From positions 1-64,000 of the forward strand of contig CABYND010000008.1 in the NCBI GenBank assembly GCA_902520195.1: DNA of 64,000 bases, written 5' to 3'. Below are positions 19,325-43,757 of the stretch, one piece after another. Position 1 is the stretch's first letter. Each line of letters begins with the position of its first letter. Source of the DNA: Halieaceae bacterium. GTDB lineage: Bacteria; Pseudomonadota; Gammaproteobacteria; Pseudomonadales; Halieaceae. The notes under the pieces are model-generated. The model ran no database searches, was not told the origin of the DNA, and saw nothing but the letters and a program-made list of their open reading frames with translations. The position numbers and the translations under genes are program-made.

Positions 19325-19353
19325 GTGACAGTTTTTTGATTAAGGTCTGAATT
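19325..19353 (-). promoter_or_regulatory. Weak candidate Pho box
   Basis: On the minus strand three 7-mers lie in 11-bp phase: AATTCAG, TAATCAA and CTGTCAC, with an AAAA spacer before the last. Only CTGTCAC is a close match to the PhoB half-site CTGTCAT. It is 51 bases before the start of the secreted protein gene. Confidence 0.35.
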
Positions 19354-19459
19354 GTGTAAATGGAGGCACGATTACTACTAGATGGTTGGCTAGATCACTA
19401 CTACCAACACTTGGTTAGCTTGCTAGCGTCATTCAGCTTTAGGAAAAAAAGTGAAAAAT

Positions 19460-19639
19460 CTAAGCGTTAACAATCACAAGCAGAACGGCAGTCAGCCCTT
19501 TTTCTGATCGCCGAATGCCCACAGCCTCGGCGTCCATGATCTTCTCGGCGACGACGGCAGCTTGGTCGTCGCTGGCGCCCGCGCGCTTCAACGCATCAGC
19601 GCAAACGGATTCAAATTGATTGAGGGTGAATACAGGCAT
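19460..19639 (-). pseudogene. N-terminal remnant of a malate/lactate dehydrogenase (Ldh2) family gene
   Basis: 59 codons from ATG to stop. The sequence FTLNQFESVCADALKRAGA, then DDQAAVVAEKIMDAEAVGIRRS, resembles the first ~50 residues of the NAD-dependent malate/L-lactate dehydrogenase family (usually about 340 aa), after which similarity stops and a hydrophobic tail precedes TAG. The catalytic and NAD regions are missing, so this is a truncated remnant, or less likely a small protein. It stands alone in a 450-base gap in a region with other gene debris. Confidence 0.5.
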
Positions 19640-19731
19640 GGTGTGCTCTTTGCTTCGGCCCTGATTGTGTCAAAAACCCGCTTTACCTGCAGAGAGGCTC
19701 TTGATTAGAGGGCTTATTCAGTTTCGGCTGA

Positions 19732-20586
19732 CTAAGCCTCATCCAGCTGTTGGACCGCGTCGTAGAGGTAATGCGTCAACGCTTTGCGACCTTTTATTTC
19801 CTCCAGAGACTCATATGCTAGGGTGTCCCCGATTGTGACGTCAAAGCGGGTGCCAAAGCGGGCCCTCGCCTCGCGAATGAGAAACGCCATGCGCAAGGAT
19901 TCCGAGAGGTGGGACGCGATATGAAAGGCACGGCTGTTTTGGCCGTGGAAAAAGATCGGCACCACATTGGCGCGCGCGTCACTAATGAGTTTGGCGGCAA
20001 AGGTCGTCCAGGGCGCGTCGACGGCTCGGCCAGTGCCGAATTTCCCGGCCGTTGAGACAAATCCCGAGGGAAAAATCAGCACGGGGATATCCTCCGCCAT
20101 CGCCTCTCGGGCTCGGCGCCCCGTAGCGACGTTGTTTTTCATGGCGGCCTTGCCGGGCGAAAAATCGACTGGCAAAAAATATGGGGCCAGATCTTTATCC
20201 CGGCAAAGCACCGCATTAATCAGGATGCGAAAGTCGCCTCGCGCTTGGGCTGCGAGGTGACAGAGTATGGTGCCGTCTATCACACCAAAGGGATGATTGG
20301 CCACCATGGCTAGCGGCCCGGTCGCGGGGATCCTATCTAACTGTGTTTGGTCATAGCGCAAATCAATGTTCGTAACCGCGATCGCATCTTCAAAAAATCT
20401 GTTGAGCTCAAAAGGTTGCGACTTTAACGTGTCATACAGTCTCTGCACCTTGCGTCGACCGAACAAGTTCTCTATGCCAAGGATCATCTGGCGGAGAAGC
20501 CAGGGGTCGTCAGGCTGCGCATAAGTCAGGGTAGAGCGCTCTTCCAGATAATGTCGAAAAAGCGGGTCATCTAGCGAGATGGTCAT
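19732..20586 (-). CDS. Lysophospholipid acyltransferase-like protein (PlsC/OlsA type)
   Basis: 284-residue acyltransferase, probably on the inner face of the membrane. The catalytic block is VANHPFGVIDG (histidine plus downstream aspartate), followed by the glycerophosphate-binding LIFPSGFVSTAGK region. It resembles the N-terminal domain of the OlsF protein encoded at 27889 and hemolysin-like acyltransferases, and could acylate lyso-ornithine lipid or lysophosphatidate. The ATG has AGAGGA at good spacing, and a well-formed Pho-box promoter (20614-20647) lies upstream, pointing to a role in lipid changes under phosphate limitation. Confidence 0.8.
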   Translation of the reverse strand: MTISLDDPLFRHYLEERSTLTYAQPDDPWLLRQMILGIENLFGRRKVQRLYDTLKSQPFELNRFFEDAIAVTNIDLRYDQTQLDRIPATGPLAMVANHPFGVIDGTILCHLAAQARGDFRILINAVLCRDKDLAPYFLPVDFSPGKAAMKNNVATGRRAREAMAEDIPVLIFPSGFVSTAGKFGTGRAVDAPWTTFAAKLISDARANVVPIFFHGQNSRAFHIASHLSESLRMAFLIREARARFGTRFDVTIGDTLAYESLEEIKGRKALTHYLYDAVQQLDEA

Positions 20587-20613
20587 GGGCTATCCTCTTA
20601 GCCAGCTGCGCTG

Positions 20614-20647
20614 AGAATAGAGGGAGAAAGTGACAAATTGGTGTCAG
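20614..20647 (-). promoter_or_regulatory. Pho box and -10 upstream of the acyltransferase gene
   Basis: Minus strand: CTGACAC, 4 bases, TTGTCAC (20630-20647), close to the E. coli phoA box. Ten bases later follows TATTCT (20614-20619), the place of the -10 in PhoB promoters, which lack a normal -35. About 25 bases further is the ribosome binding site and ATG of the acyltransferase. Confidence 0.7.
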
Positions 20648-22928: not shown

Positions 22929-23455
22929 ACACTATTTTTCTTATTTTTAACTCCAGAAAAACGTTTGCGAGCAGTTGGTTACGCAAGCGGTTGGTGCCAA
23001 TTGAGCGCGAGGCCTCAGCAGGTGAGCACTTATTTCGATAGCGCACTAAAAAAGCCCCGCTGGGTTGCAGCGGGGCAAGAGAAGCCACTCATGGTCTCCG
23101 GTTCCCAAACCGGGACAGTCGTAAGTTACCCATCGCCGATGTCAGTTTGATGCAGTTCCAGTGAATTTTATGTTTCAGCGCCGCCGTATTTCTCGTGCGG
23201 CCACGGTATTTGATTTGGCTTGAGCCGGCTGGACACTGCGCCACTTTGGGCAACGTGGTGTCCAGCGATTTAACAAATATCGTGGGATGCGAGGAGAATT
23301 CCCGTAACGAATCTGACGTAAAAAATTCAAGTTTCATTCACCTTGTGTTCATCGAAATGTAAGCCGCGGTGCTCACCATCTGGATGCCCCGGGTGGGGTC
23401 CCTAGCCGGAAGAACTCTCGGGGCTAAAACTCATATTTTGCCTATTGGAGATATC
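22929..23455. other. Intergenic region before the TonB receptor gene
   Basis: 527 bases without a protein gene. It holds a minus-strand terminator and hairpin (23048-23113, listed separately) and a weak 11-bp-phased series ATGTCAG, ATGCAGT, GTGAATT, GTTTCAG at 23139-23178 that is too far (about 280 bases) from the next start to call. The receptor's promoter must lie here. Confidence 0.5.
23048..23113 (-). ncRNA. Possible small RNA 3' end: hairpin plus intrinsic terminator
   Basis: On the minus strand a perfect hairpin CCGGTT-TGGG-AACCGG (23098-23113) is followed by a 9-bp stem GCCCCGCTG/CAGCGGGGC and a run of six T (23048-23076). No minus-strand protein gene precedes this terminator; the nearest is phoD, 2.8 kb away behind its own hairpin. 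The structure therefore may end a small RNA starting somewhere in 23120-23340. The 5' end cannot be placed. Confidence 0.4.
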
Positions 23456-25813
23456 ATGAATCGCTTTTTTTCCCAGAAATTGCCGATGGTTTCCGCTGTT
23501 TGTGCTGCGTTAACTGCGCAGGGCGCGTTGAGCCAAACTCCGACATCCGAGACAAGCAGCCTCGAAGAGGTGGTGATCGTGTCGAAGGCCACAACGTATG
23601 CGAATAACAAAATTACTGACAGCATGAAGCTGCAAAACTCCTCTATCACCAGTATCAACAACTTCATTGACAATTTGCCCGGTGTCTCGGTGCATGAGGG
23701 TGATGCCTTTGGATTTGATGATTGGTCAACCGCCATCACCGTGAGGGGCTTTCAGACCAACCTGGCTGAGCAACAGGTTGGTTCAACCATCGATGGACTG
23801 CCAAACGGCAATTCAAATTACGGCGGTGGCGCCAAGGCCAATCGATACATCGATACAGCAAACCTCGAGACGATCGAGGTCTCTCAGGGTACCGCCGATA
23901 TTTCGTCTCGATCCCTCGAGTCATTGGGTGGCACGCTGAACTACGTCACGTCGGATCCTACTTTGGATCAGCGGGTTCGGTTGGAGTACGTAACGGGGCA
24001 ATACGAAGCGCAAAGGTTATATGCCCGCTATGACTCGGGGCTGATTGGCTCATCGACTCGCTTTTATATATCGGCTTCTCACCAGGAGGCGACGGATTGG
24101 ATGGAGGGTTCCGCACAAAATGAGCGTGACCACCTGGCAGCCAAATTGCTGATAGGCAGTGAGGATTTGACTTTCACGGCATATGTTTCTTATGACGATA
24201 TTCACGAAGACAACTATCAGCGCGTGTACTCAAAAGCGGATTTTGAATCCTACCCGGATTGGGATCAGTTAATTGGCGACTGGACGAACACGCCCTACGT
24301 GAATCAATCGTATCGTCGTGGTTGGTCGACGCTGAGGGAGAATCTATTCGCCTATGGCAAGTTGGATTGGGCGGTCAGCGATAACGTTAACGTGGCTGCT
24401 TCGATTTACTACCACGATAACGAAGGGCGGGGTGACTGGATTCCGCCTTACCTCGTTGATGTTGTGGCTGACGGTGCGGGTAATCCGGAAAGTGAGTTTG
24501 GCGGGACGCAGGTCTTGGGTGGGCCAGCTCTGGGCCGAATCTATTTTGTCGACGGAAATGGCGTTTCTCTGGCGCCGCAAGACGGGTGTGTATCGTCTAT
24601 TACGTTCCCCTATGGTGGCGCGGGGGCTGCTTACGATCCTGCCTGCTATGCCCCTGGCGCAATCCCGGTGCAATCATACCGCCACTCCCACTATGCCAAA
24701 GAGCGATTGGGCTTTAGCTTCGATATGAGTTGGGATACCTCTGACAACAATACCGTTCGTGCTGGGGTTTGGTACGAGGACGGGACACGGGAAGAGTATC
24801 GTGACTGGCACAAACTGGTGGATGCCCGAATTGGTATTCCGTTTGAGAATCCTGCTTACTGGGTACAGTACGATCGCGAATACCCGCAGGACGTGCTCAA
24901 GTGGTACATCGAGGATAGTTTTACCCTTGGCAATCTAACTATTAATGTGGGCGCTAATCAGTTTCTTGTCGAGGTCTCTCGGAACGACCTCTTCGGTGCC
25001 AGCCAAGACGTCACAGTTGATTCTGATTCCGACGTATTGCCCTCTGCCGGATTCGTTTTGGACACTGGTCTAGATGGCCTGAGTCTGTTCGGTGGCTACT
25101 CCGAGAACTTCAAGTCGATTTCAGACAATATCTTGGAGAGGGAGTCTGCAGATTTGGGCAGTATTGAACCTGAAACATCAGAGGTTATGGAACTGGGGTT
25201 ACGCTTTGCAGGGTCTCGCCTGTTTGCAACGGCCACCTATTTTGACTCGCAATTTGAGAACAGGATCATTTTCTTGGCGCCCGGTAGCGCTGCGGGAAAT
25301 GACTACCTCATTGGTACTAGTGGGACTTACTTCAACGCCGGGGGTATCGACTCCTCAGGCTTTGAGTTCGCGGCCACTTATAATGTGAGTGACCGGTGGT
25401 CACTTTATGGAGCATTCACCGCCCTCGATGCCGAGTACAAGGGCACAGGTGATAGCGCCGTTGACAGCGAGAACGGAATCTTTGCTGGTAATGACGTCAC
25501 GGGCATCGCCGACACGATGTGGGTGCTCTCTCTGGATTACTCCGCCGATCGGGTCGATGCCGGTATTAGCGTCAAGAGCACTGGGGATCGCGCCGTCAAT
25601 ACGGCCAACACTTGGCATACAGACGATTACACACTCGTCGATGCGTACCTCTCGGTTTCTGGTGAGGCGATCTCTGACAGTTTCTCGGGGTTTCGGCTGC
25701 ACGCGCAGATCTTTAACTTGACTGATGAGCAGTACGAGGGTGTGGTGAGCTCCAATGCTATTTGGCTCGGCGCCCCTAGAACCGCCACAGTGGGCTTAAC
25801 GTTCGACTTCTGA
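23456..25813 (+). CDS. TonB-dependent receptor next to phoD
   Basis: Outer-membrane receptor of 785 residues. Signal peptide MNRFFSQKLP... ends near GALSQ; the TonB-box region follows as SLEEVVIVSK, the plug carries FIDNLPGVSVHEGDAFGFDD, AITVRGFQ and TADISSRSLESLGGTLNYVTSDP, and the barrel ends in GLTFDF with the terminal phenylalanine. ATG 23456 has TTGGAG seven bases upstream; the in-frame start at 23369 is unlikely. It converges on phoD and shares its terminator hairpin. Uptake of phosphodiesters or another P source handled by PhoD is plausible from context only. Confidence 0.88.
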   Translation: MNRFFSQKLPMVSAVCAALTAQGALSQTPTSETSSLEEVVIVSKATTYANNKITDSMKLQNSSITSINNFIDNLPGVSVHEGDAFGFDDWSTAITVRGFQTNLAEQQVGSTIDGLPNGNSNYGGGAKANRYIDTANLETIEVSQGTADISSRSLESLGGTLNYVTSDPTLDQRVRLEYVTGQYEAQRLYARYDSGLIGSSTRFYISASHQEATDWMEGSAQNERDHLAAKLLIGSEDLTFTAYVSYDDIHEDNYQRVYSKADFESYPDWDQLIGDWTNTPYVNQSYRRGWSTLRENLFAYGKLDWAVSDNVNVAASIYYHDNEGRGDWIPPYLVDVVADGAGNPESEFGGTQVLGGPALGRIYFVDGNGVSLAPQDGCVSSITFPYGGAGAAYDPACYAPGAIPVQSYRHSHYAKERLGFSFDMSWDTSDNNTVRAGVWYEDGTREEYRDWHKLVDARIGIPFENPAYWVQYDREYPQDVLKWYIEDSFTLGNLTINVGANQFLVEVSRNDLFGASQDVTVDSDSDVLPSAGFVLDTGLDGLSLFGGYSENFKSISDNILERESADLGSIEPETSEVMELGLRFAGSRLFATATYFDSQFENRIIFLAPGSAAGNDYLIGTSGTYFNAGGIDSSGFEFAATYNVSDRWSLYGAFTALDAEYKGTGDSAVDSENGIFAGNDVTGIADTMWVLSLDYSADRVDAGISVKSTGDRAVNTANTWHTDDYTLVDAYLSVSGEAISDSFSGFRLHAQIFNLTDEQYEGVVSSNAIWLGAPRTATVGLTFDF

Positions 25814-25851: not shown

Positions 25852-27495
25852 TCAGACAAATTTAAGCGATTGACCGTCGCGAGCAATTCGTTCTTGCCTA
25901 ACAATGGAAGTCTGATACTCGCGGTCATTAACAGTACTCACTGCAATGTAGTCAGTTGTGCCCCCGGCTACGGTGAGCACCAGTCTGACGTAACCCTGGT
26001 AGAGATTAGAGGTCCAACGAATATCAGGTACTTGCGTTGCGAAAGCGCTATCGATTTGCTCCGCTGTTGATTGGTCGAAACCCTGCTCGATAAAATCACC
26101 GGGGCTTGTAATGCCCGCGGTCCCTATCTCGATGCCGAGTTTTCGCCCATCATCGCTCGTCAGCGTGTTAGCCCAAAAGCTGTGGCTGTCCCCAGTCAGA
26201 ACCAACAAGTCGGCGACGCCGCAGGCGGCACACAATGAGTAGAGTTGTTCACGAGCCCAGGGGTAGCCATCCCAAGTATCCAGATACAGCGGGAGCCCCC
26301 ACTTGCCCTTCCAAACCAGATCCGCTGAAACGCCCGGGGCGACGCTCGGGTCGCCCGGCATGGTAATGCCCATCGCTTCAAGATTGGGTACGGGGGTCCT
26401 CGCCATCGGAATCGCGTTGCCAATGAGCCGCCATGCGGTGCCTTCTCTTTTGGAGCGTCTAAGTTCATCGGAGAGAAAGGACACCATGTGAGCAGATAGC
26501 ATGGTGCGTCCTGGCGCCTCTAAGATGTCGTGCAGGAACGCCTCAGCATCCGCTTCTGACGTAATCTGATGAGCATGGTCTGCATAGTCAATCTGTTTAC
26601 TGCGACCGGTATGCCGTGATTCCAGGTTGATGAGCGTCGCGAGGTTGCCGAACTGGTAACTGCGCCAAAACGCTTTTCGATCAGCACCTGTATTGGGCTC
26701 CCGTATAGGCATCCATTCGTAGTAAGCGCGGATAGCGCTGTCCCTACGATCTATCCACCGCCCTTCTTCATCGGGCTGATGATTCTGCGCGCCATCAACC
26801 CAAGGATTGTTGGCACTTTCGTGATCATCCCAAACTAGCAACAGTGGTTTGGCGGCATGCATTCGCCGGGAGTCGGGATCCGCTTTGTATTGCGCGTGCC
26901 GCTCTCGGTAATCCTGCAAAGACACAATTTCGTTAATGGGGCTATGGACCCGATTTAGGGCCAGCGCTGTTTGCGCTCCCCAGCCTGTCGCCGCATATTC
27001 GTAGATGTAGTCACCCAAATGAAGAACGAAGTCGACAGCGTCGTCTCGGGCAATGGCGTCGTAAGCGTTGAAGAATCCAAAGGCGTAGTTCGAGCAGGAC
27101 GCGAGGGCAAGCCCGAGCCTGTCTATATTGCCTGAAGGGAGTGTTCGTGTTCGGCCAATGGCAGAGGATACTCCCTGACAATTAAATCGATAGAAGTAAC
27201 GCTTTCCCGGCTCCAAACCGCCGACAATCACTTTAACTGTATAGTCCTGATACTGATTGGTCGTTTCACTTCCATGGGAAACGATTCGCTTAAACGTCGA
27301 ATCCAATGCCAGCTGCCAACTGACAGATTGACTCTTGGCGACGCCGCTCACTCGCGTCCAGATCACCAAGCTTTCTTGGTCTGGATCTCCACTGGCTACG
27401 CCATGCACAAATGAAGGTGCGGTATCAGCTGCGAGCTTAGCGGTGGAGAGAATCGGTAGGCTGGCAATCCCATTGAGTACTTGTCTGCGCTTCAA
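25852..27495 (-). CDS. phoD: PhoD-like alkaline phosphatase/phosphodiesterase
   Basis: Exported Ca/Fe phosphoesterase. The start is TTG 27495 (GAGG eight bases upstream), giving a Tat-type signal LKRRQVLNGIASLPILS; longer in-frame starts up to 27627 would run through the promoter. The N-terminal domain reads FVHGVASGDPDQESLVIWTRV, typical of PhoD; metal and active-site blocks are CSNYAFGFFNAYDAIA, LHLGDYIYEYA, VWDDHESANN and LTGDSHSFWAN. 547 residues, normal length. A Pho-box array at 27532-27571 lies directly upstream, and the next gene on the other side is the olsF-plcP operon. Confidence 0.9.
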   Translation of the reverse strand: MKRRQVLNGIASLPILSTAKLAADTAPSFVHGVASGDPDQESLVIWTRVSGVAKSQSVSWQLALDSTFKRIVSHGSETTNQYQDYTVKVIVGGLEPGKRYFYRFNCQGVSSAIGRTRTLPSGNIDRLGLALASCSNYAFGFFNAYDAIARDDAVDFVLHLGDYIYEYAATGWGAQTALALNRVHSPINEIVSLQDYRERHAQYKADPDSRRMHAAKPLLLVWDDHESANNPWVDGAQNHQPDEEGRWIDRRDSAIRAYYEWMPIREPNTGADRKAFWRSYQFGNLATLINLESRHTGRSKQIDYADHAHQITSEADAEAFLHDILEAPGRTMLSAHMVSFLSDELRRSKREGTAWRLIGNAIPMARTPVPNLEAMGITMPGDPSVAPGVSADLVWKGKWGLPLYLDTWDGYPWAREQLYSLCAACGVADLLVLTGDSHSFWANTLTSDDGRKLGIEIGTAGITSPGDFIEQGFDQSTAEQIDSAFATQVPDIRWTSNLYQGYVRLVLTVAGGTTDYIAVSTVNDREYQTSIVRQERIARDGQSLKFV

Positions 27496-27531
27496 GTAAA
27501 TGACCTCTATGAACTGATGCACAGAAACGTT

Positions 27532-27571
27532 GGCACAAAATTGTGTAAAAAAAGTGACAACCGCGGTGAAT
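27532..27571 (-). promoter_or_regulatory. Pho-box array upstream of phoD
   Basis: Minus strand, four 7-mers exactly 11 bp apart: ATTCACC, TTGTCAC, TTTACAC, TTGTGCC, separated by GCGG, TTTT, AATT. TTGTCAC and TTTACAC are close to PhoB half-sites known in E. coli phoA and pstS. The array ends 36 bases before the phoD start codon. A -10 could be CACAAT inside the array or a weak match after it. Confidence 0.65.
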
Positions 27572-27605
27572 AGTACTAGCGATGGAGCACTCGCAACGCG
27601 CATTT

Positions 27606-27661
27606 TGATAACAAAAAGTTCAAGCAAACTTCAACTTTCTGCAACAGTGGGTCGCCACAAT
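27606..27661 (+). promoter_or_regulatory. Pho-box array upstream of the small ORF-olsF-plcP operon
   Basis: Plus strand, four 7-mers 11 bp apart: TGATAAC, AGTTCAA, ACTTCAA, CTGCAAC (27606-27645), with A/T-rich spacers. Ten bases later is CACAAT (27656-27661) as possible -10. Single boxes are weak, but the phase and spacing copy the stronger arrays at 35311 and 42074. It is back to back with the phoD array. Confidence 0.5.
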
Positions 27662-33638: not shown

Positions 33639-34196
33639 TCAGAGAGCGCTCACCAAACCAGCTGAGATCGTCGCTATGGTGCTGCCGATGATTGCTCCCG
33701 CCATCACGTCGCAGGGGAAGTGCACTGCTAGCATTATTCGAGACAGCCCTATAGCGGACGCCCACAAGAAGAAGGGGTTATGCGGGCCCGTTAACAACAT
33801 GCCAGCGATCGTGGCGAAGCAAAATGCTGCTGATGTGTGGCCTGAAGGGAAGCTGAACTGATCAGCAGGGACGACTGCCGCTTTGATACTGGGCATCACC
33901 TGTTCTGGACGATTACGTTTAAGACCAATTTTAAGCAGGAAATAGAATGGGCGTTCGATCGCAAATGCGAGGATCAAAGCTAGGCAGAAGGCCTCAGCAC
34001 GAGGTATCTCTGCTAACCACACGGCTACCCCGATCACTACATAAAGCGGGCCATCCCCTGTGCGAGAGACTCTCGTCACCACCCTCGTGAGCCTCTGGCG
34101 GTAACGTACCCCCTGAAACACGCGATTCAGTATGAGGGTATCCCACTGCTGCAGCCTGGCTAACGGACCCATTGGCGAAGTGTGAGAATGAAGCAT
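33639..34196 (-). CDS. PAP2-family lipid phosphatase
   Basis: Membrane phosphatase of about 185 residues. The three PAP2 signatures are KIGLKRNRPEQ (KX6RP-like), FPSGHTSAA (PSGH) and SRIMLAVHFPCDVMAGA (SRX5HX3D). Such enzymes dephosphorylate phosphatidate, PGP or undecaprenyl-PP. ATG 34196 is chosen; GTG 34223 lies inside the probable Pho array and ATG 34172 is another option. First gene of the PAP2-glycosyltransferase-ugd operon, with stops and starts touching. Converting phosphatidate to diacylglycerol for the glycosyltransferase fits the context. Confidence 0.85.
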   Translation of the reverse strand: MLHSHTSPMGPLARLQQWDTLILNRVFQGVRYRQRLTRVVTRVSRTGDGPLYVVIGVAVWLAEIPRAEAFCLALILAFAIERPFYFLLKIGLKRNRPEQVMPSIKAAVVPADQFSFPSGHTSAAFCFATIAGMLLTGPHNPFFLWASAIGLSRIMLAVHFPCDVMAGAIIGSTIATISAGLVSAL

Positions 34197-34203
34197 GGCA
34201 TTC

Positions 34204-34256
34204 TTGTTAAGCAGCCATGGCACTTTTGTTAAAAATTTGTTTCGACTTTGTTACCG
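34204..34256 (-). promoter_or_regulatory. 11-bp-phased array upstream of PAP2-GT-ugd, candidate Pho box
   Basis: On the minus strand CGGTAAC, TCGAAAC, TTTTAAC lie 11 bp apart with spacers AAAG and AAAT (34228-34256), and GCTTAAC is in phase two turns further (34206-34212). On the plus strand the same bases read TTGTTAC, TTGTTTC, TTGTTAA. The boxes are degenerate (xxGTAAC/xxGAAAC forms recur in the 42074 array), and orientation is ambiguous, but the phase is exact. Confidence 0.45.
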
Positions 34257-35310: not shown

Positions 35311-35388
35311 GTGTCATAAATTTGCAATTAAATTGTCAATTTTGTGTAACGCGACTGACATCACAGGGTCATGTTCCAGCCCTACTCT
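35311..35388 (+). promoter_or_regulatory. Six-unit Pho-box array with -10
   Basis: Six 7-mers exactly 11 bp apart start at 35311, 35322, 35333, 35344, 35355 and 35366: GTGTCAT, TTGCAAT, TTGTCAA, GTGTAAC, CTGACAT, GGGTCAT, with spacers AAAT, TAAA, TTTT, GCGA, CACA. Ten bases after the last is TACTCT (35383-35388), the expected -10 place. The receptor gene starts at 35442. This is the clearest PhoB-type site in the window. Confidence 0.75.
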
Positions 35389-35441: not shown

Positions 35442-38400
35442 ATGCATTTTCGTGTTTTGTCGCCCAACCTCCGCAAATCGTTGGTTTCTGTACTACTCGG
35501 TCTTGTGTCAACTGCAGCGCATGCTGACGACGAATTACTCCTATATGTTTATGACGGTGCTACACCCGTTGAGGGCGCATCTATAGCCCTAGATGGCACT
35601 GAAGTTGGAGTAACACGGCGAGACGGTTCGCTGGTAGCCGATTTGTCGGAGGGGCAACATACGATTTTGGTCTCTGCTCCCAGTGGCACGACCAGTAGCG
35701 CTCGGTTCGCCGCAGGATCGGGCCAGCTCGTAGATGTGATATCTGACTTGGGATCAGCGGGTCCAGCGTATGTTGAGGTTTACTCGCGTTTGGAGTCCAG
35801 CGCTGATCGCAGGAAGGCTCCAACTGGCAAACTTCAAGTGACCGTAAGGGTTGGTGCGGAAGTGATCCCCGACCAGACGATAGACATATCTGGCGGCCAG
35901 GGTTCTATCGTGACTGATGAAGAGGGCGTTGCGACCGCTGTTATTCCACGAGGCGTTTACCGCCTCAGTATAGAGGGTTTAATTCAGGAAGCCCGCGTTG
36001 TGGGCGGCATCACTCGTGCAGTCACAGTGATATTGCCGGAACCCGGTGGAGAAGATCTTGCGGGCCCCTCACTTGAAGAGGTGCTCGTGGTCGCTTCTTT
36101 TGACCCAAGTGGTCTCGAGGTTTCAGAGCGAGACGCGAGCAACATCGTGGATACTATAGGGGTAGAGCTGCTAGCTCGGTATTCGGATTCTGATGTTGCT
36201 GCCTCAGTGGTTCGGGTGCCAGGCATTTCAGTGCAGGACAATAAATACGTATTTATCCGCGGACTTGGCGGAAGGTACGTGTCCTCAACACTCAACAATG
36301 CAACGATGCCATCTACAAATCCTTCGAAGCGCACTGTGCCGTTGGACTTGTTCCCCTCCAGTTTTGTGAATCAGCTAGATATCAAGAAAACTTTCTTGCC
36401 CTTCATGCCTGGAGAGTCTTCCGGTGGCAATCTGGTTATCAATACAAAGACGTTTCCTGACGAGAGGGTCATGAGCCTAAGAGGGAGCTTGGGCTTCGTG
36501 ACGGATTTAACCGGGGAGGACGTCTTCACTGACCCTATTGATGGAGATTTTGACAGTATCGGGTGGGACGACGGTGCTCGAGAGGAAGATGCGCTTGTAT
36601 CGGCAATTGCCGACGTACTTGCCCTTGGCAGACTCTATGACGAAAAAAACGATACCTATTGGGAGCTGGACGAGTCCACGGAAGGTGAGTTGAGGAGGGT
36701 GGGTGCGCTCTTAATTAAAGATGGCTTTGACCTAGATTTCCAGACTGCAACACCTGGGGGCAGCCTCGGCATTGATTTTGGCGACGTTTACTATCTCGGC
36801 AACACCGAGTTAGGGGTGTACGCCGCGGCAAATTACTCAAATGAATGGTCGCAGCGCGACAAAGGAGTGCGCAGAACCTACACGGGTGCGGAAGAGAATG
36901 CGGATAATTTCGCTTATCGGCAATATTCGAACAACATAGAGGCCAGTGGCCTAATTTCTATCGGGTTAAATACCGGTAACAACACATTTGAGTGGAATAA
37001 CCTTGTCTCGAGAGTCACCCAGAGCATCCTAGAGCGCTCGGTAGGTGAGGAGGGAGACGAATTTCAAACAGTCTATGCCCACACCATACAGTGGGAAGAG
37101 CGACAGTTTTTGTCCTCGCAGATAGTCGGATCCCATTTCCTCACGGATAACGGGTCCATCTTTCTGGAGTGGCAGTTCACTGGCAGTCAAGCGAGACGCT
37201 ATGCCCCTGATAGACGGGAGGTAGAATTTAGAACATCGGGGGCCCGGACTAACTCTGCAGACCTGCGGAGCCGCTTCGACTTCAACTCCGCAAATACTGC
37301 TCAGTCCATTGATTTGGTGGGGTTTCGTCTCGAGCCAGGCACAATTTTGCGTCGTTACGATGACCTCGTCGACAACAACTTCGACCTGTCCGCTGATCTC
37401 ACCTGGGATGTTTTCGATAACGGGTCCACCTTCGGTAGTTTTCAAGCCGGGTTTCAGGCTATTTATCGTGAGCGCGACTCTGACGTATCAGTTTATGGCT
37501 TCAATATAAATCAGGCCAGAGAGTCCTTATTAAGAGCCGACAACGCTCTGGTCAGCGAGGTTTTGTATGCGTGTGGCGAGGGCCCGGGAACAATCGCATG
37601 CCAGCGAACAGAAAGTGACGCTGGTTCAGCTCCGCCTTTGGGGGGTATCACCGACAGTCCCGACACGGGCCTTGTCTTCAACAATAAAACTCTAGCCTCT
37701 GATAGTTACGAAGCAGACCTAAATTACAACAGCGTGTATGCAATGTATGACCATACTTGGGCCTCAGTGTGGAATGTTGTTGTAGGCGCGCGTTTTGAAA
37801 TGTATGAGCAGACCACGGACACCTTCTCGCTTCAAGGTGAGCAGGCTTCCGTTCAGTCAGTCATAGACGAGGACAGCGTGCTCCCCAGCCTGGGCATCAA
37901 TTGGTTCTACTCCGACACACAGCAGCTTCGCCTAGCGGTCTCGCAGACGGTTGCGAGGCCAGATTTTAAGGAGGCTGCGAACGCAACCTTTTACGATAAT
38001 GAGTTTAATTTCAGAGTGCGGGGTAACCCTTTCCTAACTATTTCTGAGGTTATCAATGCTGACCTGAGGTGGGAGTGGTATCCAAGCGAAGTAGACAGCT
38101 TGTCCGTGGCTGTGTTCTACAAAGACATGGATGACCCGATAGAGCGCGTCGTTCAGTTGGCTTCAGGCACAGCTGGCAACTCTCGTACGTTCCAGAACTC
38201 TGAATCTGCTGAGTTGTATGGCGCAGAAGTTGAGGGCCGAAAGGAATTTAATTTGGGTGAGGATTTCACCAGGACGTTGTTCGTGGCTTTCAACGGCGCC
38301 TACATCGAGTCAGAGGTTTCAGCTCAAAATCAGCTGGATCGGGAGCTGCAAGGTCAGCCTGAATACACGGCCAACCTTATTGTCGGGTACGACGACATCG

Positions 38401-38666
38401 CTAGCGGCCACCAATTGACACTCTTATTTAATTACAACGGAGAATCTATCGCTGATGTTGGCATAGATCAGTTACCCGACGTCTTGTTGGAGGCGCGCGG
38501 TGAGCTCAACCTAATCTACCGTTACAACCTCTCCGAGGCCCTGACACTGCAGGCGAAAGTAGAAAATTTATTGAATGCGGAAGTTGAGTACACACAGGGT
38601 GGAAAGGTTTTCCAGCGGTATGAGAAAGGTATGGGTCTCCAGGTCGCATTTAACTGGGAATTTTAA
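35442..38666 (+). CDS. TonB-dependent receptor with two N-terminal carboxypeptidase-regulatory-like repeats
   Basis: Outer-membrane receptor, 1074 residues. Signal peptide ends near STAAHA. Two beta-sandwich repeats (about 28-110 and 125-205) precede the TonB-box/plug (EEVLVVASF; YVFIRGLGGRYVSSTLNNA; NQLDIKKTFLPFMPGESSGG). The barrel ends in QVAFNWEF. A GAGG site lies seven bases before the ATG. Six in-phase Pho boxes lie upstream, and the lipoprotein gene follows after 52 bases, so the two form a phosphate-regulated outer-membrane pair. Ligand unknown; an organic phosphorus compound is inferred from control, not from sequence. Confidence 0.88.
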   Translation: MHFRVLSPNLRKSLVSVLLGLVSTAAHADDELLLYVYDGATPVEGASIALDGTEVGVTRRDGSLVADLSEGQHTILVSAPSGTTSSARFAAGSGQLVDVISDLGSAGPAYVEVYSRLESSADRRKAPTGKLQVTVRVGAEVIPDQTIDISGGQGSIVTDEEGVATAVIPRGVYRLSIEGLIQEARVVGGITRAVTVILPEPGGEDLAGPSLEEVLVVASFDPSGLEVSERDASNIVDTIGVELLARYSDSDVAASVVRVPGISVQDNKYVFIRGLGGRYVSSTLNNATMPSTNPSKRTVPLDLFPSSFVNQLDIKKTFLPFMPGESSGGNLVINTKTFPDERVMSLRGSLGFVTDLTGEDVFTDPIDGDFDSIGWDDGAREEDALVSAIADVLALGRLYDEKNDTYWELDESTEGELRRVGALLIKDGFDLDFQTATPGGSLGIDFGDVYYLGNTELGVYAAANYSNEWSQRDKGVRRTYTGAEENADNFAYRQYSNNIEASGLISIGLNTGNNTFEWNNLVSRVTQSILERSVGEEGDEFQTVYAHTIQWEERQFLSSQIVGSHFLTDNGSIFLEWQFTGSQARRYAPDRREVEFRTSGARTNSADLRSRFDFNSANTAQSIDLVGFRLEPGTILRRYDDLVDNNFDLSADLTWDVFDNGSTFGSFQAGFQAIYRERDSDVSVYGFNINQARESLLRADNALVSEVLYACGEGPGTIACQRTESDAGSAPPLGGITDSPDTGLVFNNKTLASDSYEADLNYNSVYAMYDHTWASVWNVVVGARFEMYEQTTDTFSLQGEQASVQSVIDEDSVLPSLGINWFYSDTQQLRLAVSQTVARPDFKEAANATFYDNEFNFRVRGNPFLTISEVINADLRWEWYPSEVDSLSVAVFYKDMDDPIERVVQLASGTAGNSRTFQNSESAELYGAEVEGRKEFNLGEDFTRTLFVAFNGAYIESEVSAQNQLDRELQGQPEYTANLIVGYDDIASGHQLTLLFNYNGESIADVGIDQLPDVLLEARGELNLIYRYNLSEALTLQAKVENLLNAEVEYTQGGKVFQRYEKGMGLQVAFNWEF

Positions 38667-38718
38667 TTCGTTCAGTAGCAATGACCCGCCGGGGTCTTAA
38701 ATAGCAAGGAGTAAACTA

Positions 38719-41532
38719 ATGAATAAGCGGTTTCTATTGGCTTTAATGGTCTCCGGGGCCTTGATAGGGCTCGGCGGGTGTTCGGAGGGCGACGATGCCA
38801 CTATCACGATCGAGGCACCAACTACAAGTACGGTTGACAACAGCACTACCACGACTAATCCGACGCCCGATCCGACGCCCGATCCGACGCCGGATCCGAC
38901 ACCTGAACCTGAGGCGTGCCCAACAGGCACCACCGAGGTTAGCGATGGCGTCTGTCAGTTACCGGCAAGTATTTCATCTGATTTGACTCTGACTGCTGGT
39001 GCTAGTTACCTCATGGATGGCAGGGTTACTGTTGGTAACGGTAACGGAGAGTTAGGAGAGGATGGTAACCTCTCTGACGGAACTGCAGTTCAAAATGTCA
39101 CTCTCACCGTGGAAGCGGGTGTAGAGATCAAAGGTAAGACCGGAACCTTCGCGAACCTCGTCATAACTCGCGGCTCCAAGATTATGGCAATGGGCACGAA
39201 AAATGCACCAATTGTTATGTCCTCTGACGATGCTGGAATTGCCGGCGCTGGGGAGTGGGGCGGCTTGATCATTCATGGATATGGACGTCATAACAAATGT
39301 CCGGAGGGCGGCACCGTCTGCAATATCGACGCTGAAGGAGAATCTGGTTTTGCTGGTGGCTACAATGACGACGATAGCTCAGGTGTTTTGCAATATGTTG
39401 TTGTGGCAGAAGGTGGCTACGAGTTCTCTCCTGGTGACGAGATCAATGGCATTTCATTGGTAGGTGTTGGTCGCGGTACGACCATGGAGTACATTCAGGT
39501 TGAAGGAAACTCCGATGATGGCATCGAGTTTTACGGTGGTGCTGTAAACGTTCGGTACGGAGTCTTTACAAACAACCTTGACGACTCAGTAGATTGGGAT
39601 GAGGGGTATCAGGGTAATCTGCAGTACATCATCGTCAAGCAGTCTCCCAACGGCAGCGGTGAAGCCTTTGAGATGGACACTGAAGGTACTACGCTGTTTC
39701 TGTCTAAGCCAACGGTGTCTAATCTGACCGTCATCGCTGATAAACAGGCCGATGATGACAACTATATCTTGCATTTCAAGAAGAGCTCGGGTGGTTTCTT
39801 CCACAACACTGTTTTGTCTGTTGCTGAAGACAACGCCACACCGCTTAATCAGTGTGTAAGAGTCAATGGGTCCGGGTCAGAAGCTAACGTTGGCACGTCT
39901 TTGGTTCTTAACAACTGGATACAAGATTGTGCAGCGGGAGCAGGTGATAGAGGTTCTCTCTCCGGCTCTAACGTCGATTTGGATAACGGCACCATCTATG
40001 CAGTCAATGCCCGTTTGAATGCCAACGGCGCTTCTGAAGCGCCAGAAGCGATTCTAAGCGCATCGGTGGACTGGGCAGACGTGAATGCTGCTTATCCAGA
40101 ATCCGTCGCCGATGTGAACTGGCTGGAGCCCACTCGATTTATGGGTGCAGTTAACCCGACTACCAACGACGCTTGGTGGGCCGGGTGGACGGTAGAGGGT
40201 TCCGTTGGCAACCCAGAGGTAGCAGAGGCTACGTGTCCCGTGACGACGACTGAAGTATCCACAGGGGTCTGCTTGTTACCACCCACGATCGTCTCAGATT
40301 TGCGTCTGAACGGTGGAGTAGAGTACCTGATGGAAGGCCGTGTCACCGTCGGTAACGGAAACGTTGAGCTCGGTGAGGACGGTAATCTCTCAGATGGCTC
40401 CTCTGTGAGAAACGTCACTTTGACGATCGATGCCGGTGTTGAAATCAAAGGCAAAACAGGTACGTTCGCCAACCTCGTAATAACTCGAGGCTCAAAGATA
40501 ATGGCAATGGGTACGAAGTCAGCACCTATTGTAATGTCCTCTGATGATGCTGGTATATCTGGTGCTGGGGAATGGGGCGGCTTGGTCATCCATGGTTATG
40601 GTCGGCACAATAAGTGTCCTGAAGGCGGCACTGTTTGCAATATCGATGCTGAAGGTGAGTCGGGTTTTGCCGGTGGCTACAACGATGACGACAGCTCTGG
40701 CGTCATGCGTTACCTAGTAGTTGCAGAGGGTGGATACGAGTTTTCACCTGGTAATGAGATCAATGGGATTTCACTTGTCGGCGTAGGTCGCGGTACTGAG
40801 ATGGATTACATTCAGGTCGAGGGAAATTCTGACGATGGCATCGAATTTTACGGAGGTGCTGTTAATGTCAAGCACGGAGTCTTTACTAACAACTTGGATG
40901 ACTCTGTAGACTGGGATGAAGGCTATCAAGGTAACTTGCAGTACATCATCGTGAAGCAGTCATCCTCAGGAAGTGGTGAAGCTTTTGAGATGGACACGGA
41001 GGGAACAACTCTGTTCCTATCCAAGCCTACCGTCTCCAACCTGACCATTATTGCTGATAAGCAGGCGGATGATGATAACTACATTTTGCATTTCAAGAAG
41101 AGTTCTGCAGGCTTCTTCCACAACTCAGTGGTTACAGTCGCGGCGGACAACACAACTCCTCTAGATACCTGTGTGAGAGTCAATGGCTCCGGGTCTGAGG
41201 CCAACGTGGGCACTTCTCTAGTTTTGAACAACTGGATTCAGGACTGTGCTGCTGGCTCTGGAAATCACGGTACGCTTTCGATATCTGACGGTGGAGTTAA
41301 CTTGGATAACGGAACCATTATTGCCACTGATGCAGCTTTAGATGCGATTCTGGCTTCTCAGGCTGCGGAAGCCGCGGGCCTTGAGGCTCAGGATTGGACT
41401 GCAATCAATGGCGCGTACTCCGAGTCAGTAGCTGATCCTGATTACCTGGACTCAACAACTTACATGGGAGCAGTGAATCCTGATGGCTCGGACCCGTGGT
41501 GGGCCGGATGGACAGTGTCTGGCTCTCTCTAG
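38719..41532 (+). CDS. Large surface lipoprotein with two near-identical beta-helix domains
   Basis: 937 residues. Signal and lipobox LIGLGG-C21, then a threonine-rich linker with three TPDP repeats (about 48-64), then two units, residues 67-499 and 506-937. Each has GVEIKGKTGTFANLVITRG, APIVMSSDDAG, GEWGGLIIHGYGRHNKCPEG, GNSDDGIEFYGGAVNV and WWAGWTV; the pattern suggests right-handed parallel beta-helices. Many Asp/Asn turns may bind calcium. It is co-transcribed with the receptor (AAGGAG before ATG) and may be its ligand-capture partner, like SusD for SusC. No catalytic residues were recognised. Confidence 0.8.
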   Translation: MNKRFLLALMVSGALIGLGGCSEGDDATITIEAPTTSTVDNSTTTTNPTPDPTPDPTPDPTPEPEACPTGTTEVSDGVCQLPASISSDLTLTAGASYLMDGRVTVGNGNGELGEDGNLSDGTAVQNVTLTVEAGVEIKGKTGTFANLVITRGSKIMAMGTKNAPIVMSSDDAGIAGAGEWGGLIIHGYGRHNKCPEGGTVCNIDAEGESGFAGGYNDDDSSGVLQYVVVAEGGYEFSPGDEINGISLVGVGRGTTMEYIQVEGNSDDGIEFYGGAVNVRYGVFTNNLDDSVDWDEGYQGNLQYIIVKQSPNGSGEAFEMDTEGTTLFLSKPTVSNLTVIADKQADDDNYILHFKKSSGGFFHNTVLSVAEDNATPLNQCVRVNGSGSEANVGTSLVLNNWIQDCAAGAGDRGSLSGSNVDLDNGTIYAVNARLNANGASEAPEAILSASVDWADVNAAYPESVADVNWLEPTRFMGAVNPTTNDAWWAGWTVEGSVGNPEVAEATCPVTTTEVSTGVCLLPPTIVSDLRLNGGVEYLMEGRVTVGNGNVELGEDGNLSDGSSVRNVTLTIDAGVEIKGKTGTFANLVITRGSKIMAMGTKSAPIVMSSDDAGISGAGEWGGLVIHGYGRHNKCPEGGTVCNIDAEGESGFAGGYNDDDSSGVMRYLVVAEGGYEFSPGNEINGISLVGVGRGTEMDYIQVEGNSDDGIEFYGGAVNVKHGVFTNNLDDSVDWDEGYQGNLQYIIVKQSSSGSGEAFEMDTEGTTLFLSKPTVSNLTIIADKQADDDNYILHFKKSSAGFFHNSVVTVAADNTTPLDTCVRVNGSGSEANVGTSLVLNNWIQDCAAGSGNHGTLSISDGGVNLDNGTIIATDAALDAILASQAAEAAGLEAQDWTAINGAYSESVADPDYLDSTTYMGAVNPDGSDPWWAGWTVSGSL
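38917..41529 (+). repeat. Tandem intragenic duplication (two ~1.29-kb units)
   Basis: Unit 1 is 38917-40203, unit 2 is 40234-41529. The encoded domains are roughly 85% identical, while many codons differ only at third bases (for example GGTGAAGCCTTTGAG against GGTGAAGCTTTTGAG), so both copies have been kept by selection. Confidence 0.9.
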
Positions 41533-41609: not shown

Positions 41610-41960
41610 TTAAGCGGGGGTTTTAGCTGACATTAGCTCCCAGGACCTGCGACCATCTTTTCGCTCTTGATAACGGTAGAGTACTTCAGACCCCTCAGGA
41701 AGCGATTGCAGATCCCCCGTGGCTTTGAATTGCACTTTGGAGCGAGCGCCGCGCGTCTTGGCATGACAACGGGCATTCTCGCCATCAGTAACGCTTGTGA
41801 AGCGTATCCGTAACGGACTGTCCGAGGCGCGTTGTTTGATCTGACCCGAAAAAAGGCACTCTTGATTGAGTTCTGCCATAGTTGGCGCGGCAATAAGGCT
41901 GGCTGCCATTGAGGTAATGGCAGCGATGAGAGTTGAACGCAGTGCTTTCTTGTTTTCCAT
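41610..41960 (-). CDS. Hypothetical small secreted protein
   Basis: 116 residues, not recognised. Signal peptide ends in APTMAEL; the mature part is basic with two cysteines (ECLFSG, ARCHAKT) likely paired, and predicted beta strands (PLRIRFTSV, SKVQFKATGD, VLYRYQER). AAGGAG lies ten bases before the ATG. A strong 11-bp-phased Pho-type array is 114 bases upstream, mostly oriented away from this gene, so phosphate control is possible but unclear. Confidence 0.65.
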   Translation of the reverse strand: MENKKALRSTLIAAITSMAASLIAAPTMAELNQECLFSGQIKQRASDSPLRIRFTSVTDGENARCHAKTRGARSKVQFKATGDLQSLPEGSEVLYRYQERKDGRRSWELMSAKTPA

Positions 41961-42073
41961 GCTTCTTCTCCTTGCGCCTCACGGCGCGTTGTCGCTTCAC
42001 AGCGTGGTGCCAGAGCAGCGTTAGGCTGTCGGCAGGGTAGTAACAGCGGCGCTGTCATCAAAATGACTTTTTT

Positions 42074-42144
42074 TCGTCATACAACTGCAATATAAATGTA
42101 ACACATCTGTCATAAAAATGAAACATGGAAAATTCTCATTTAAT
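42074..42144 (+). promoter_or_regulatory. Five-unit Pho-box array without an evident target gene
   Basis: Plus strand 7-mers start at 42074, 42085, 42096, 42107 and 42118: TCGTCAT, CTGCAAT, ATGTAAC, CTGTCAT, ATGAAAC; spacers ACAA, ATAA, ACAT, AAAA. CTGTCAT is a perfect half-site. TTTAAT (42139-42144) could be the -10. No plus-strand protein gene follows before 43791. On the minus strand the same array contains GTTACAT and GTTTCAT forms and lies 114 bases before the 41960 start. Confidence 0.65.
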
Positions 42145-42224
42145 CCGCAATAAAAACAACAACCTATGAGTAGAGGGTGGACGAAAGAGATTATGTGAGT
42201 AGCCGACGGAGCCGCCCGTAAAAG

Positions 42225-43616
42225 CTAGAGCACCCCCAACACATCAGCCAGTAAAACATCCATATTGGCTCGCGACTCGTTAAGGGTGAGCCCAAGTCGG
42301 ACCACGACCAGCTCTTCCTCTGGAATTACAACTACGAATTGACCGGAATTGCCGCCAGCATGAAAGGTGTTTTCGGGTGCACTGGGGAACGCCTGGTGTC
42401 CGGTGTTGAGCCAAAACCCGAGACCATATATCTCGCCGCTTTTTGCGGTGCCAGGTGTGACAGCTTGCCGTTGCCACTGTTGGCTGATTACGTCACTCCG
42501 CCCGTGCCAGGCATCCAGCCATAGCTGACCCATGCGCGCCCAATCTCTCGCTGTAAGGTACGCATAGCTAGAACCCACCTGCACACCGCTGGCGTCGGGT
42601 TCAAGCACGACGGCTTGAAGTGCGAGGGACTCAATAAACTGAGCCTTGATCCAGTCAGGGTAGGGCTCTCCACCTAACGACTGCTGCCACATCAAGGAAG
42701 CGGTATTGATGTCACCACTGGAATAGGCCCATTGCTCTCCTGGCGTGTGAGCATGGCCGGTATCTGGCGCCGACCACCACATACGCGGTTGCCGATAGAG
42801 CATGTCGGTTACGTCGTCACCGGGGAAATAACGTTCCGAGAAATCAAAGCCGGTGGTCATCGACAGCAAGTGCCGTAATGTGAGGACCGGGTTAACTTTG
42901 TCGAGGGTTTCGGCATCGGTACCCGCCGCTTGCAGCGCATTCACCACGGACCCGTCCAAATCCAGCTTGCCTTGATCGACTTGGCGCCCGATAAACGTCG
43001 CCATCAGGCTCTTGCTCATCGACCAGCCCTGCATTGGCGTCGTATTCATAACGGGTGCTCCGTACCGCTCTGCAACCATTTCGCCGCGATGCCTGACGAT
43101 GACGGCGAGGGTATTCCGTCCCCCTTCCGGCGGTTCGGCAAAGGCGGTGTCCAGAGCAGATTGCAGTGCCGGCTTCTCCCCCGCATGTACAGCCGGCGCG
43201 GCGTGAGTGATGGGTGCCAGCGCCGCGCCGGCGCTAAAGGGATGCGTTGAGGTGCCATCAGCAGCAGCCACAAAAGGAAATAGTGGTGCATGATCCGGCG
43301 TGACGAGCGTGCAGCCGTAGCCTCGTCGGTGCCGTGCAGTCACCTCTTGTCCCAGCATGCGAGCCGCCACCTCCCGATGACCGTAATTGACCTCATAGCC
43401 GAGTAATTTTGCGAGGGGCTCGACAGTGGCAAGGCGCGGCAGTACATCCGTCTCAAGGACAAACTGCTCCGGTAGTCGCGCCACAAACATACCCGAGCAA
43501 ATTTGCTTGGCGGCATAGCCCGCGCCAACGCTGCCTGCTTGTAGCGTTAAGCGATGCGTCAGCACAATAGCCGCGATCACTCCTAGCGCCGCGAGGAGTT
43601 TCAGCACACCCTTCAT
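42225..43616 (-). CDS. Serine hydrolase, class C beta-lactamase family
   Basis: 463 residues with an N-terminal membrane anchor or signal (KLLAALGVIAAIVLTHRL) and a C-terminal beta-lactamase/transpeptidase-like domain. Catalytic SMSK is at 199-202 (GWSMSKSLMATF), the second motif is the YSS of WAYSSGDIN, and the third is HAGGNSG. Such proteins act as esterases or peptidases of unknown substrate (6-aminohexanoate hydrolase and EstB relatives). ATG 43616 has AGGAC upstream; the in-frame start at 43670 is less likely. Its 3' end faces the plus-strand Pho array at 42074, so a PhoB-driven transcript would run antisense into it. Confidence 0.83.
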   Translation of the reverse strand: MKGVLKLLAALGVIAAIVLTHRLTLQAGSVGAGYAAKQICSGMFVARLPEQFVLETDVLPRLATVEPLAKLLGYEVNYGHREVAARMLGQEVTARHRRGYGCTLVTPDHAPLFPFVAAADGTSTHPFSAGAALAPITHAAPAVHAGEKPALQSALDTAFAEPPEGGRNTLAVIVRHRGEMVAERYGAPVMNTTPMQGWSMSKSLMATFIGRQVDQGKLDLDGSVVNALQAAGTDAETLDKVNPVLTLRHLLSMTTGFDFSERYFPGDDVTDMLYRQPRMWWSAPDTGHAHTPGEQWAYSSGDINTASLMWQQSLGGEPYPDWIKAQFIESLALQAVVLEPDASGVQVGSSYAYLTARDWARMGQLWLDAWHGRSDVISQQWQRQAVTPGTAKSGEIYGLGFWLNTGHQAFPSAPENTFHAGGNSGQFVVVIPEEELVVVRLGLTLNESRANMDVLLADVLGVL

Positions 43617-43722
43617 TATTGGAGTCCTATGAAAGATATCAGGCGACGGAGGCTGAGCTAGGCGTCTCATAAAGTCCAGCTTTGTTAGAAATGCGATTCA
43701 TTGCCGTGCTCGCTGACAAACG

Positions 43723-43757
43723 GGTTCACACGGCTGTCATGTTCCCAGCGATATACT
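43723..43757 (+). promoter_or_regulatory. Candidate Pho box and -10 of the PiT gene
   Basis: GGTTCAC and CTGTCAT are 11 bp apart (43723-43740), followed after 11 bases by TATACT (43752-43757), a good -10. The second half-site is perfect, the first weak. It is 33 bases before the transporter start. Confidence 0.55.

What the first reader, a model, noticed from the sequence alone, without database searches (positions are those of the whole stretch)
19325..43757. A phosphate-starvation island defined by seven or eight 11-bp-phased Pho-box arrays
Direct reading finds CTGTCAT-like 7-mers repeated at exactly 11-bp steps before the acyltransferase (20.63 kb), phoD and olsF-plcP (27.5-27.65 kb), PAP2-GT-ugd (34.2 kb), receptor-lipoprotein (35.3 kb), an orphan site (42.1 kb) and PiT (43.7 kb), with a weak one at 19.3 kb. 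PhoB is known to bind such direct repeats. Several have a -10-like element 10-11 bases after the last box, the PhoB promoter layout. Arrays of this kind were not noticed elsewhere in the window by eye, though no whole-window scan was possible. The phase, more than the letters, carries the argument.
Basis: partly seen in the sequence, partly recalled or inferred. Interest (0 to 1): 0.88.

Follow-up and report, generated by a model that had tools for sequence, protein, structure and literature searches.

The report
Phosphate-starvation gene island with one reversed switch
A marine bacterium keeps its phosphate-saving genes together behind repeated DNA docking sites of the kind used by the phosphate regulator PhoB, and the largest set of sites faces the wrong way in front of a small secreted protein, where it may act as an off-switch.

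Summary
The observation largely holds. A half-site matrix built without window sequence finds long arrays in the window at an 11-bp step and at no other step from 8 to 15. A strict three-half-site pattern occurs at 5 places in the 2.14-Mb assembly: 3 in this window, one at phoB, one inside a gene. In genus relatives (Luminiphilus, Halieaceae) phoB, TonB-receptor and PiT promoters carry such arrays, with a -10 peak at 10-11 nt. That is PhoB-activator architecture; no expression data exist. Corrections: the 19.3-kb site fails; an array at 23.30 kb, before another TonB receptor, was missed; one at 18.25 kb beside a plcP remnant looks non-functional. Two- and three-box sites rest on position and conservation, not score. 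The 'orphan' at 42.1 kb has seven half-sites, lies before a 116-aa secreted protein, points away from it, and is conserved with two tandem GNRA-loop hairpins. In two relatives the same module precedes a different small protein. No -10 sits at the activator spacing. I read it as a cassette repressed by PhoB or run by another regulator; that part is new and unproven.

The parts
20630..20647 (-). PhoB-type array, 2 half-sites, then 10 nt and TATTCT, before the acyltransferase gene
   Evidence: same layout (2 boxes, 10 nt, TAnnnT, 61 nt from start) in 3 of 3 orthologues of 83-90% identity; the homologues of 41-47% identity are mixed
19732..20586 (-). acyltransferase related to the OlsF/GlsA acyltransferase part
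   Evidence: Pfam PF19576; NCBIfam OlsF and GlsA matches below cut-off
   Evidence: borderline with the phoB-only matrix (3 positions in 400 kb as good)
23369..25813 (+). TonB-dependent receptor 1 (real start probably 23456, inferred from the reading of the sequence)
   Evidence: Pfam PF00593/PF07715; sequence
27543..27560 (-). PhoB-type array, 2 half-sites, before phoD; hexamer CAACGT at +10 is weak
   Evidence: kept in one close relative (L152)
25852..27627 (-). PhoD-like phosphatase (the listed ORF start lies upstream of the array; the real start is further in, inferred)
   Evidence: PF09423
27617..27645 (+). weak array, 3 half-sites, then 10 nt and CACAAT, before olsF
   Evidence: 3-box layout kept in L153 and L155; not supported by score with the phoB-only matrix
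27889..29607 (+). OlsF, bifunctional ornithine lipid synthase
   Evidence: NF052615, 761.6 bits, cut-off 620
29648..30445 (+). PlcP-like metallophosphoesterase
34195..34256 (-). array of 6 half-sites, then 10 nt and CACACT, before PAP2-glycosyltransferase-ugd
   Evidence: kept, read by eye, in L172, L189 and L195; the more distant loci were not assessed
31231..34223 (-). PAP2 phosphatase, MJ1255/VC2487-family glycosyltransferase, nucleotide-sugar (UDP-glucose type) dehydrogenase
35311..35372 (+). array of 6 half-sites, then 10 nt and TACTCT, before TonB receptor 2
   Evidence: genus-wide footprint
35442..41532 (+). TonB-dependent receptor 2 and an internally duplicated putative lipoprotein
   Evidence: PF00593; TIGR01782 below cut-off; lipoprotein without Pfam family
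42052..42124 (+). reversed array of 7 half-sites, upstream of the 41610-41960 gene and pointing away from it
41967..42004 (-). leader with two tandem hairpins (loops GUGA, GCGA or GGGA in relatives) directly before the likely ribosome-binding site
   Evidence: covariance model R1, which includes this sequence: 64.3 bits here, next best 11 in 464 kb; pair counts
41610..41960 (-). 116-aa protein with a signal-peptide-like start (by eye), unknown family, two conserved Cys
   Evidence: no Pfam or NCBIfam hit; invariant Cys; 67 of 140 family genomes have a relative
43723..43740 (+). PhoB-type array, 2 half-sites, then 11 nt and TATACT, before PiT
43791..45791 (+). PiT phosphate transporter and PhoU-like (DUF47) protein
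   Evidence: PF01384, PF01865
18246..18285 (+). array-like stretch of 4 half-sites at the edge of a plcP 3' remnant; no -10; probably not a promoter

Best explanation
The region is a phosphate-starvation island of a Luminiphilus-like marine gammaproteobacterium. Phosphorylated PhoB binds head-to-tail to 7-bp half-sites spaced 11 bp apart (two to six per promoter). The last half-site lies 10-11 nt upstream of the -10 and stands in for the -35, so RNA polymerase is recruited to genes for phosphate scavenging (PhoD, PiT), membrane-lipid replacement (OlsF, PlcP-like phosphoesterase, acyltransferase, PAP2-glycosyltransferase-ugd) and outer-membrane uptake (two TonB receptors, one with a lipoprotein). 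Arrays, phase, spacing and conservation are shown; PhoB binding and induction are inferred. The 42.1-kb array is a different use of the same half-site: seven half-sites run away from the small secreted-protein gene and cover or border the stretch where its promoter most likely lies (not located), followed by two tandem GNRA-loop hairpins. I think it most likely holds this cassette down when phosphate is short (about 0.4 for that step alone).
For: Period test and shuffles; 400-kb same-genome background; whole-assembly strict pattern: 5 places, 3 in the window and one at phoB. Mean -10 score peaks at offset 10 (phoB, TBDR) and 11 (PiT): 16 of 27, 21 of 27 and 18 of 19 loci have a -10-like hexamer at offset 9-12, expected 5.1, 2.5 and 1.5; 3 phoB, 1 TBDR and 7 PiT loci were dropped for too little sequence behind the array. 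Arrays point toward the gene in 28 of 28 TBDR, 26 of 30 phoB, 20 of 26 PiT and 4 of 4 acyltransferase loci (this genome's own included); in the cassette they point away in 29 of 31. Cassette: no -10 excess on the canonical side, 9 of 28 against 8.7 expected. Precedent: in E. coli a weak antisense-strand PhoB site at the -10 represses phoB (PMC6194859, passages).
Against: No expression, binding or phosphate data. Short arrays (2-3 half-sites) are not distinguishable from background by score alone. The main matrix contains relatives of two window promoters (TBDR, PiT), so those two are not independent of it; the phoB-only matrix is, and it leaves PAP2 and the 23.3-kb array borderline and olsF unsupported. 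Other steps also give stray hits: 0-2 per box number in 400 kb, and with the phoB-only matrix the best 4-box score at step 12 is 18.8 against 24.5 at step 11. 9 of 30 phoB loci lack a good 3-box array. PiT of the four other-genus loci shows no such promoter. pstS was not found, but the assembly is 69% complete. An array also scores high at the plcP remnant (18.25 kb) without promoter features, so a high score is not proof. For the cassette no core promoter was identified, and half-site composition cannot separate PhoB from another OmpR-family regulator.
Confidence: 0.8

Rival explanations
1. The 42.1-kb array is read by another OmpR-family response regulator and activates the small secreted-protein gene; as seen from the gene the repeats read GTTACA/GTTTCA at 11-bp steps.
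For: The cassette is conserved in other genera and in contexts without a phosphate neighbour in the 1.5-kb flank, for example behind ends that look like ImuB; many far-clade half-sites are TGTAAC/TGAAAT-like.
Against: Half-site composition matches the TBDR and PiT promoters, and close-clade half-sites include CTGTCAT; 12 of 30 family loci have the island's lipoprotein next door.
Confidence: 0.3
2. The reversed array drives an unannotated rightward RNA or tiny peptide.
For: Canonical orientation on the + strand; about 30 nt to the right of the array are partly conserved in four close species.
Against: No -10 at +10/+11 and no -10 excess over 28 loci; the sequence beyond is hardly conserved; right-hand neighbours differ, and in 28 of 30 loci the longest listed ORF there lies on the small gene's strand.
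Confidence: 0.1
3. The arrays are chance matches in AT-rich intergenic DNA.
For: Two- and three-box sites score within background; intragenic and remnant hits exist.
Against: 11-bp period, same-genome background, genus-wide footprints and fixed -10 spacing.
Confidence: 0.03

Closest known systems
PhoB Pho-box activator promoters (E. coli pstS/phoA/ugpB type)
   Same: 7-bp CTGTCAT-like half-sites plus 4 bp as direct repeats (so defined in PMC4415409, passages); -10 about 10 nt after the last half-site (E. coli spacing recalled)
   Different: Six half-sites are the commonest count before the genus's TBDR2 gene (13 of 27); half-sites accept A at position 5; several sites clustered in about 23 kb
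E. coli phoB antisense-strand repression site (PMC6194859, passages)
   Same: Tandem PhoB half-sites in reverse orientation at the promoter of the downstream gene
   Different: E. coli has two weak half-sites with one base less spacing; here seven phased half-sites, conserved across species, and a hairpin leader; no repression shown
plcP gene clusters with Pho boxes in marine bacteria (PMC4796936, passages)
   Same: PlcP-like gene beside lipid-remodelling genes with upstream Pho boxes
   Different: Here with OlsF, PiT, PhoD and two TonB receptors; the words Halieaceae, NOR5 and TonB do not occur in that paper's main text

Membership tests
PhoB-activated promoter (Pho box) | 7+4-bp direct repeats at an 11-bp period | tested here: met
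   period control; (met by score for the long arrays only)
PhoB-activated promoter (Pho box) | -10 hexamer about 10-11 nt after the last half-site, array toward the gene | tested here: met
   for acylT, olsF, PAP2, TBDR2, PiT; weak for phoD (0.1) and 23.3 kb (0.9); relatives
PhoB-activated promoter (Pho box) | same two features at 42.1 kb | tested here: not met
   array points away from the gene (29 of 31 cassettes), no -10 peak (9 of 28 against 8.7)
PhoB-activated promoter (Pho box) | genome encodes PhoB and carries the same motif before phoB | tested here: met
   (328.2 bits, cut-off 296.2); three half-sites before phoB here, and a 3-box score of 14 or more in 21 of 30 genus loci
PhoB-activated promoter (Pho box) | binding by phosphorylated PhoB and induction in low phosphate | not testable with these tools
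   needs ChIP-seq and RNA-seq
PhoB antisense repression site | reverse-oriented half-sites over the promoter | tested here: inconclusive
   orientation met; position of the core promoter not established
Known structured RNA leader | match to an Rfam family | tested here: not met
   0 matches up to E 5 in window 41800-42400
OlsF | score above the curated cut-off | tested here: met
   761.6 against 620 bits

The most novel reading that the evidence does not exclude
The 42.1-kb element is a mobile regulatory module: a reversed PhoB-type array of up to seven or eight half-sites joined to a leader of tandem GNRA-loop hairpins. It controls small secreted proteins at both the DNA and the RNA level and is exchanged between unrelated coding sequences, with opposite sign to the surrounding phosphate-activated genes.
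Probability: 0.3. Interest if true: 0.7.

Novelty: new variant of a known kind. Interest (0 to 1): 0.5.

Why it matters
Halieaceae are abundant in coastal seawater (abstract start of PMC10100682 in the listing). The listings show no title on a phosphate regulon of theirs; the three papers were not opened. The island gives a directly testable Pho regulon that joins lipid replacement with TonB uptake, and a matrix usable across the genus. The reversed array is a natural test of whether the direction of a PhoB array decides activation or repression.

Tried and rejected
Perfect dimers: the pattern NTGTCA-N6-TGTCA gave 8 places in the genome: one is the phoB promoter, three belong to a dispersed repeat, and four were not followed beyond a look at their sequence (ORFs listed for L005 only). 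Letters alone mislead.

pstS as a control promoter: family TIGR00975 gave no match in this 69%-complete genome; Pst was not searched further in the genus.

First matrix: half-site weights recalled from the E. coli consensus were used to pick sites; the statistics use matrices from sequences outside the window. The -10 matrix is recalled.

Rows dropped from matrices: phoB promoters under score 14 (9 of 30), TBDR loci with the start missing (L113, L117) or a 6-box score under 14 (8 of 27; a ninth rounds to 14.0), PiT loci under 11 (number not printed).

Structure of the small protein: mean pLDDT 67.5 from 8 sequences; Foldseek against the PDB found nothing at E 0.001 or better. No function is claimed.

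Core promoter of the cassette: -10-like peaks on the gene side recur every 11 bp inside the array and may be box composition; not used as evidence.

Leader folding: single-sequence z-scores are modest (-1.0 to -2.4). The pair count used 12 hand-trimmed leaders out of 30 loci. The first helix never varies and so says nothing; the second has two pairs with changes on both sides. 65 of 500 shuffles equalled that number of pairs and 445 of 500 the number of pair types; 0 of 500 equalled the covariation score or the share of paired cells. The case rests mainly on conservation and uniqueness.
Full report
What was checked. The window is contig C8 of a 2,135,850-bp assembly, 69% complete; named records with close relatives of its small secreted protein are Luminiphilus, Halieaceae and one unspecified gammaproteobacterial MAG (7 loci). 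I scored 7-bp half-sites at fixed steps with a matrix from TonB-receptor and PiT promoters of relatives and phoB promoters of the genus, this genome's phoB included; no window sequence entered.

Is it more than chance? With that matrix only the 11-bp step gives window positions above the 95% level of 200 block-dinucleotide shuffles: 1, 10, 11 and 14 positions for 2, 3, 4 and 6 half-sites; steps 8-10 and 12-15 give none. In 400 kb of the same genome, 20 stretches from 11 contigs, the same thresholds mark two places at the 11-bp step: the phoB promoter and one just over the 6-box threshold; other steps give 0-2 positions per box number, so a few stray hits are expected. In the window they mark six places: 18.25, 23.3, 34.2, 35.3, 42.1 and 62.3 kb (the last with 3 half-sites, inside ORF 61942-62727). 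Over the whole assembly the pattern TGNMA at three successive 11-bp steps occurs at five places: 18.25, 35.3 and 42.1 kb of the window, the phoB promoter, and C10:80793, which lies inside an ORF; the reversed control pattern gave two matches. With a matrix from 21 of 30 phoB promoters alone, the 4-box scores at 35.3, 42.1 and 18.25 kb exceed all positions of the 400 kb; PAP2 and 23.3 kb are borderline (1 and 3 positions as good at 6 boxes); acyltransferase (5 positions as good at 2 boxes), phoD, PiT and above all olsF are within background. Step 11 then leads for 3, 4 and 6 half-sites, not for 2. So the long arrays are secure on their own; the short ones need other evidence.

Promoter layout. 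In the window the hexamer 10 nt (PiT: 11 nt) after the last half-site is TATTCT (acyltransferase), TATACT (PiT), TACTCT (TBDR2), CACAAT (olsF), CACACT (PAP2), CACCAT (TBDR1) and CAACGT (phoD, two-box reading); the last two score weakly. At 42.1 and 18.25 kb there is none. In relatives the mean -10 score peaks at offset 10 for phoB (27 of 30 loci usable) and TBDR (27 of 28) and at 11 for PiT (19 of 26). The acyltransferase layout is kept in 3 of 3 orthologues of 83-90% identity; the distant homologues are mixed. The PAP2 array, six half-sites on the minus strand, is kept in three relatives, read by eye. Six half-sites are the commonest count before TBDR2 in the genus (13 of 27 loci). PiT of four other-genus loci shows no such promoter.

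The island. Genes: acyltransferase; TonB receptor 1; PhoD; OlsF and a PlcP-like phosphoesterase; PAP2, glycosyltransferase and nucleotide-sugar dehydrogenase; TonB receptor 2 with lipoprotein; PiT with a PhoU-like protein. In relatives OlsF lies beside PiT (for example G049, G090) or divergent from the receptor (for example G035, G087, G094, G129), and in 7 of 57 genus genomes a phoB homologue (64-68% identical to this PhoB) lies 1.7-3.1 kb from the receptor (coordinates). This fits a phosphate regulon and known plcP clusters with Pho boxes (PMC4796936, passages). Function in phosphate starvation is inferred from family names and motif.

The 42.1-kb array. It has seven half-sites (42052-42124), kept in place without indels, with letter changes, in three close relatives. 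To its left is a 116-aa protein gene on the minus strand, to its right the 3' end of a beta-lactamase-family gene on the same strand. I compared 30 loci of the family out of 68 matches in 67 genomes. The array points away from the small gene in 29 of 31 cassettes; these are 29 of the 30 loci (one too short) plus the two different-protein cassettes below. On the other side the longest listed ORF lies on the small gene's strand in 28 of 30 loci; L068 is unclear and L081 has no sequence there (at most 8 ORFs printed per locus). Upstream neighbours vary: the lipoprotein in 12 of 30, the beta-lactamase-family gene in 4, ends resembling ImuB by eye in 5 of the 8 printed, while the array stays with the small gene. 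Between array and start codon lies a leader with two hairpins whose loops are GUGA, GCGA or GGGA; on 12 leaders all 108 pair cells are standard and two pairs of the second helix change on both sides. A covariance model of these 12 finds it once in this window plus the 400 kb (64.3 bits, next best 11). In 21 genus genomes strong matches (57 bits or more) occur in 8 genomes, one place each except G049, which has a second at a contig end; all others score 20.7 or less; only 150 first-look candidates per genome were scored. In G102 and G104 the same reversed array and leader precede a different small protein with a signal-peptide-like start; both genomes lack a match to the family model, and the G102 protein has no Pfam or NCBIfam match. 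No Rfam family matches.

How it may work. E. coli phoB carries a weak PhoB site on the antisense strand at its -10 that represses transcription (PMC6194859, passages), and E. coli PhoB both activates and represses depending on site position (PMC10294691, passages). A reversed, strong array over or next to the cassette promoter fits repression by phosphorylated PhoB. The alternative, another OmpR-family regulator reading the repeats from the other side, is almost as likely: several cassettes, such as those behind ImuB-like ends, show no phosphate neighbour in the 1.5-kb flank, and half-site letters do not decide.

What stays open. No expression or binding data exist. The cassette's core promoter is unknown. 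Pst genes were not found here and were not sought across the genus. Papers were seen as listings or passages only. The searches whose listings showed no description of this island or cassette were made, in an open-access library that lacks most subscription journals; most listed papers were not opened.

Noticed in passing
window 18297-18620: A plcP 3' fragment 89% identical over 324 bp to the intact gene at 29648-30445; an 11-bp-phased array-like stretch lies at its left edge.
   Followed up: partly
window 34781-35164 (-): Remnant of an olsF N-terminal part (56% identical over 128 aa to the intact OlsF), divergent from TonB receptor 2; several relatives have an olsF in that position.
   Followed up: partly
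window 21278-21417: Dispersed repeat (C-rich, with GTTAGCC) with copies in C6, C12 and four within 3.6 kb of C2 (L212), possibly integron attC-like (a guess, not tested); some copies carry a TGTCA dimer that mimics a Pho box.
   Followed up: partly
window 38719-41532: The putative lipoprotein is an internal duplication: two halves 80% identical over 414 aa; no Pfam family.
   Followed up: no
L239, L240 (G102:C4, G104:C64): The same reversed array and hairpin leader precede a different small protein of 113-114 aa.
   Followed up: partly
L070, L073, L074, L076, L082: Relatives of the small protein sit behind ORFs whose ends resemble ImuB (recognised by eye, no database call; sequences).
   Followed up: no
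G012, G102, G104, G105, G121, G125, G139: A phoB homologue lies 1.7-3.1 kb from the TonB receptor 2 homologue; in six of the seven it is a second copy, in G104 the only match.
   Followed up: no
window 30521-30922 (-): Diacylglycerol kinase (PF01219) beside plcP, which could recycle the diacylglycerol that PlcP releases (the link is inference).
   Followed up: no
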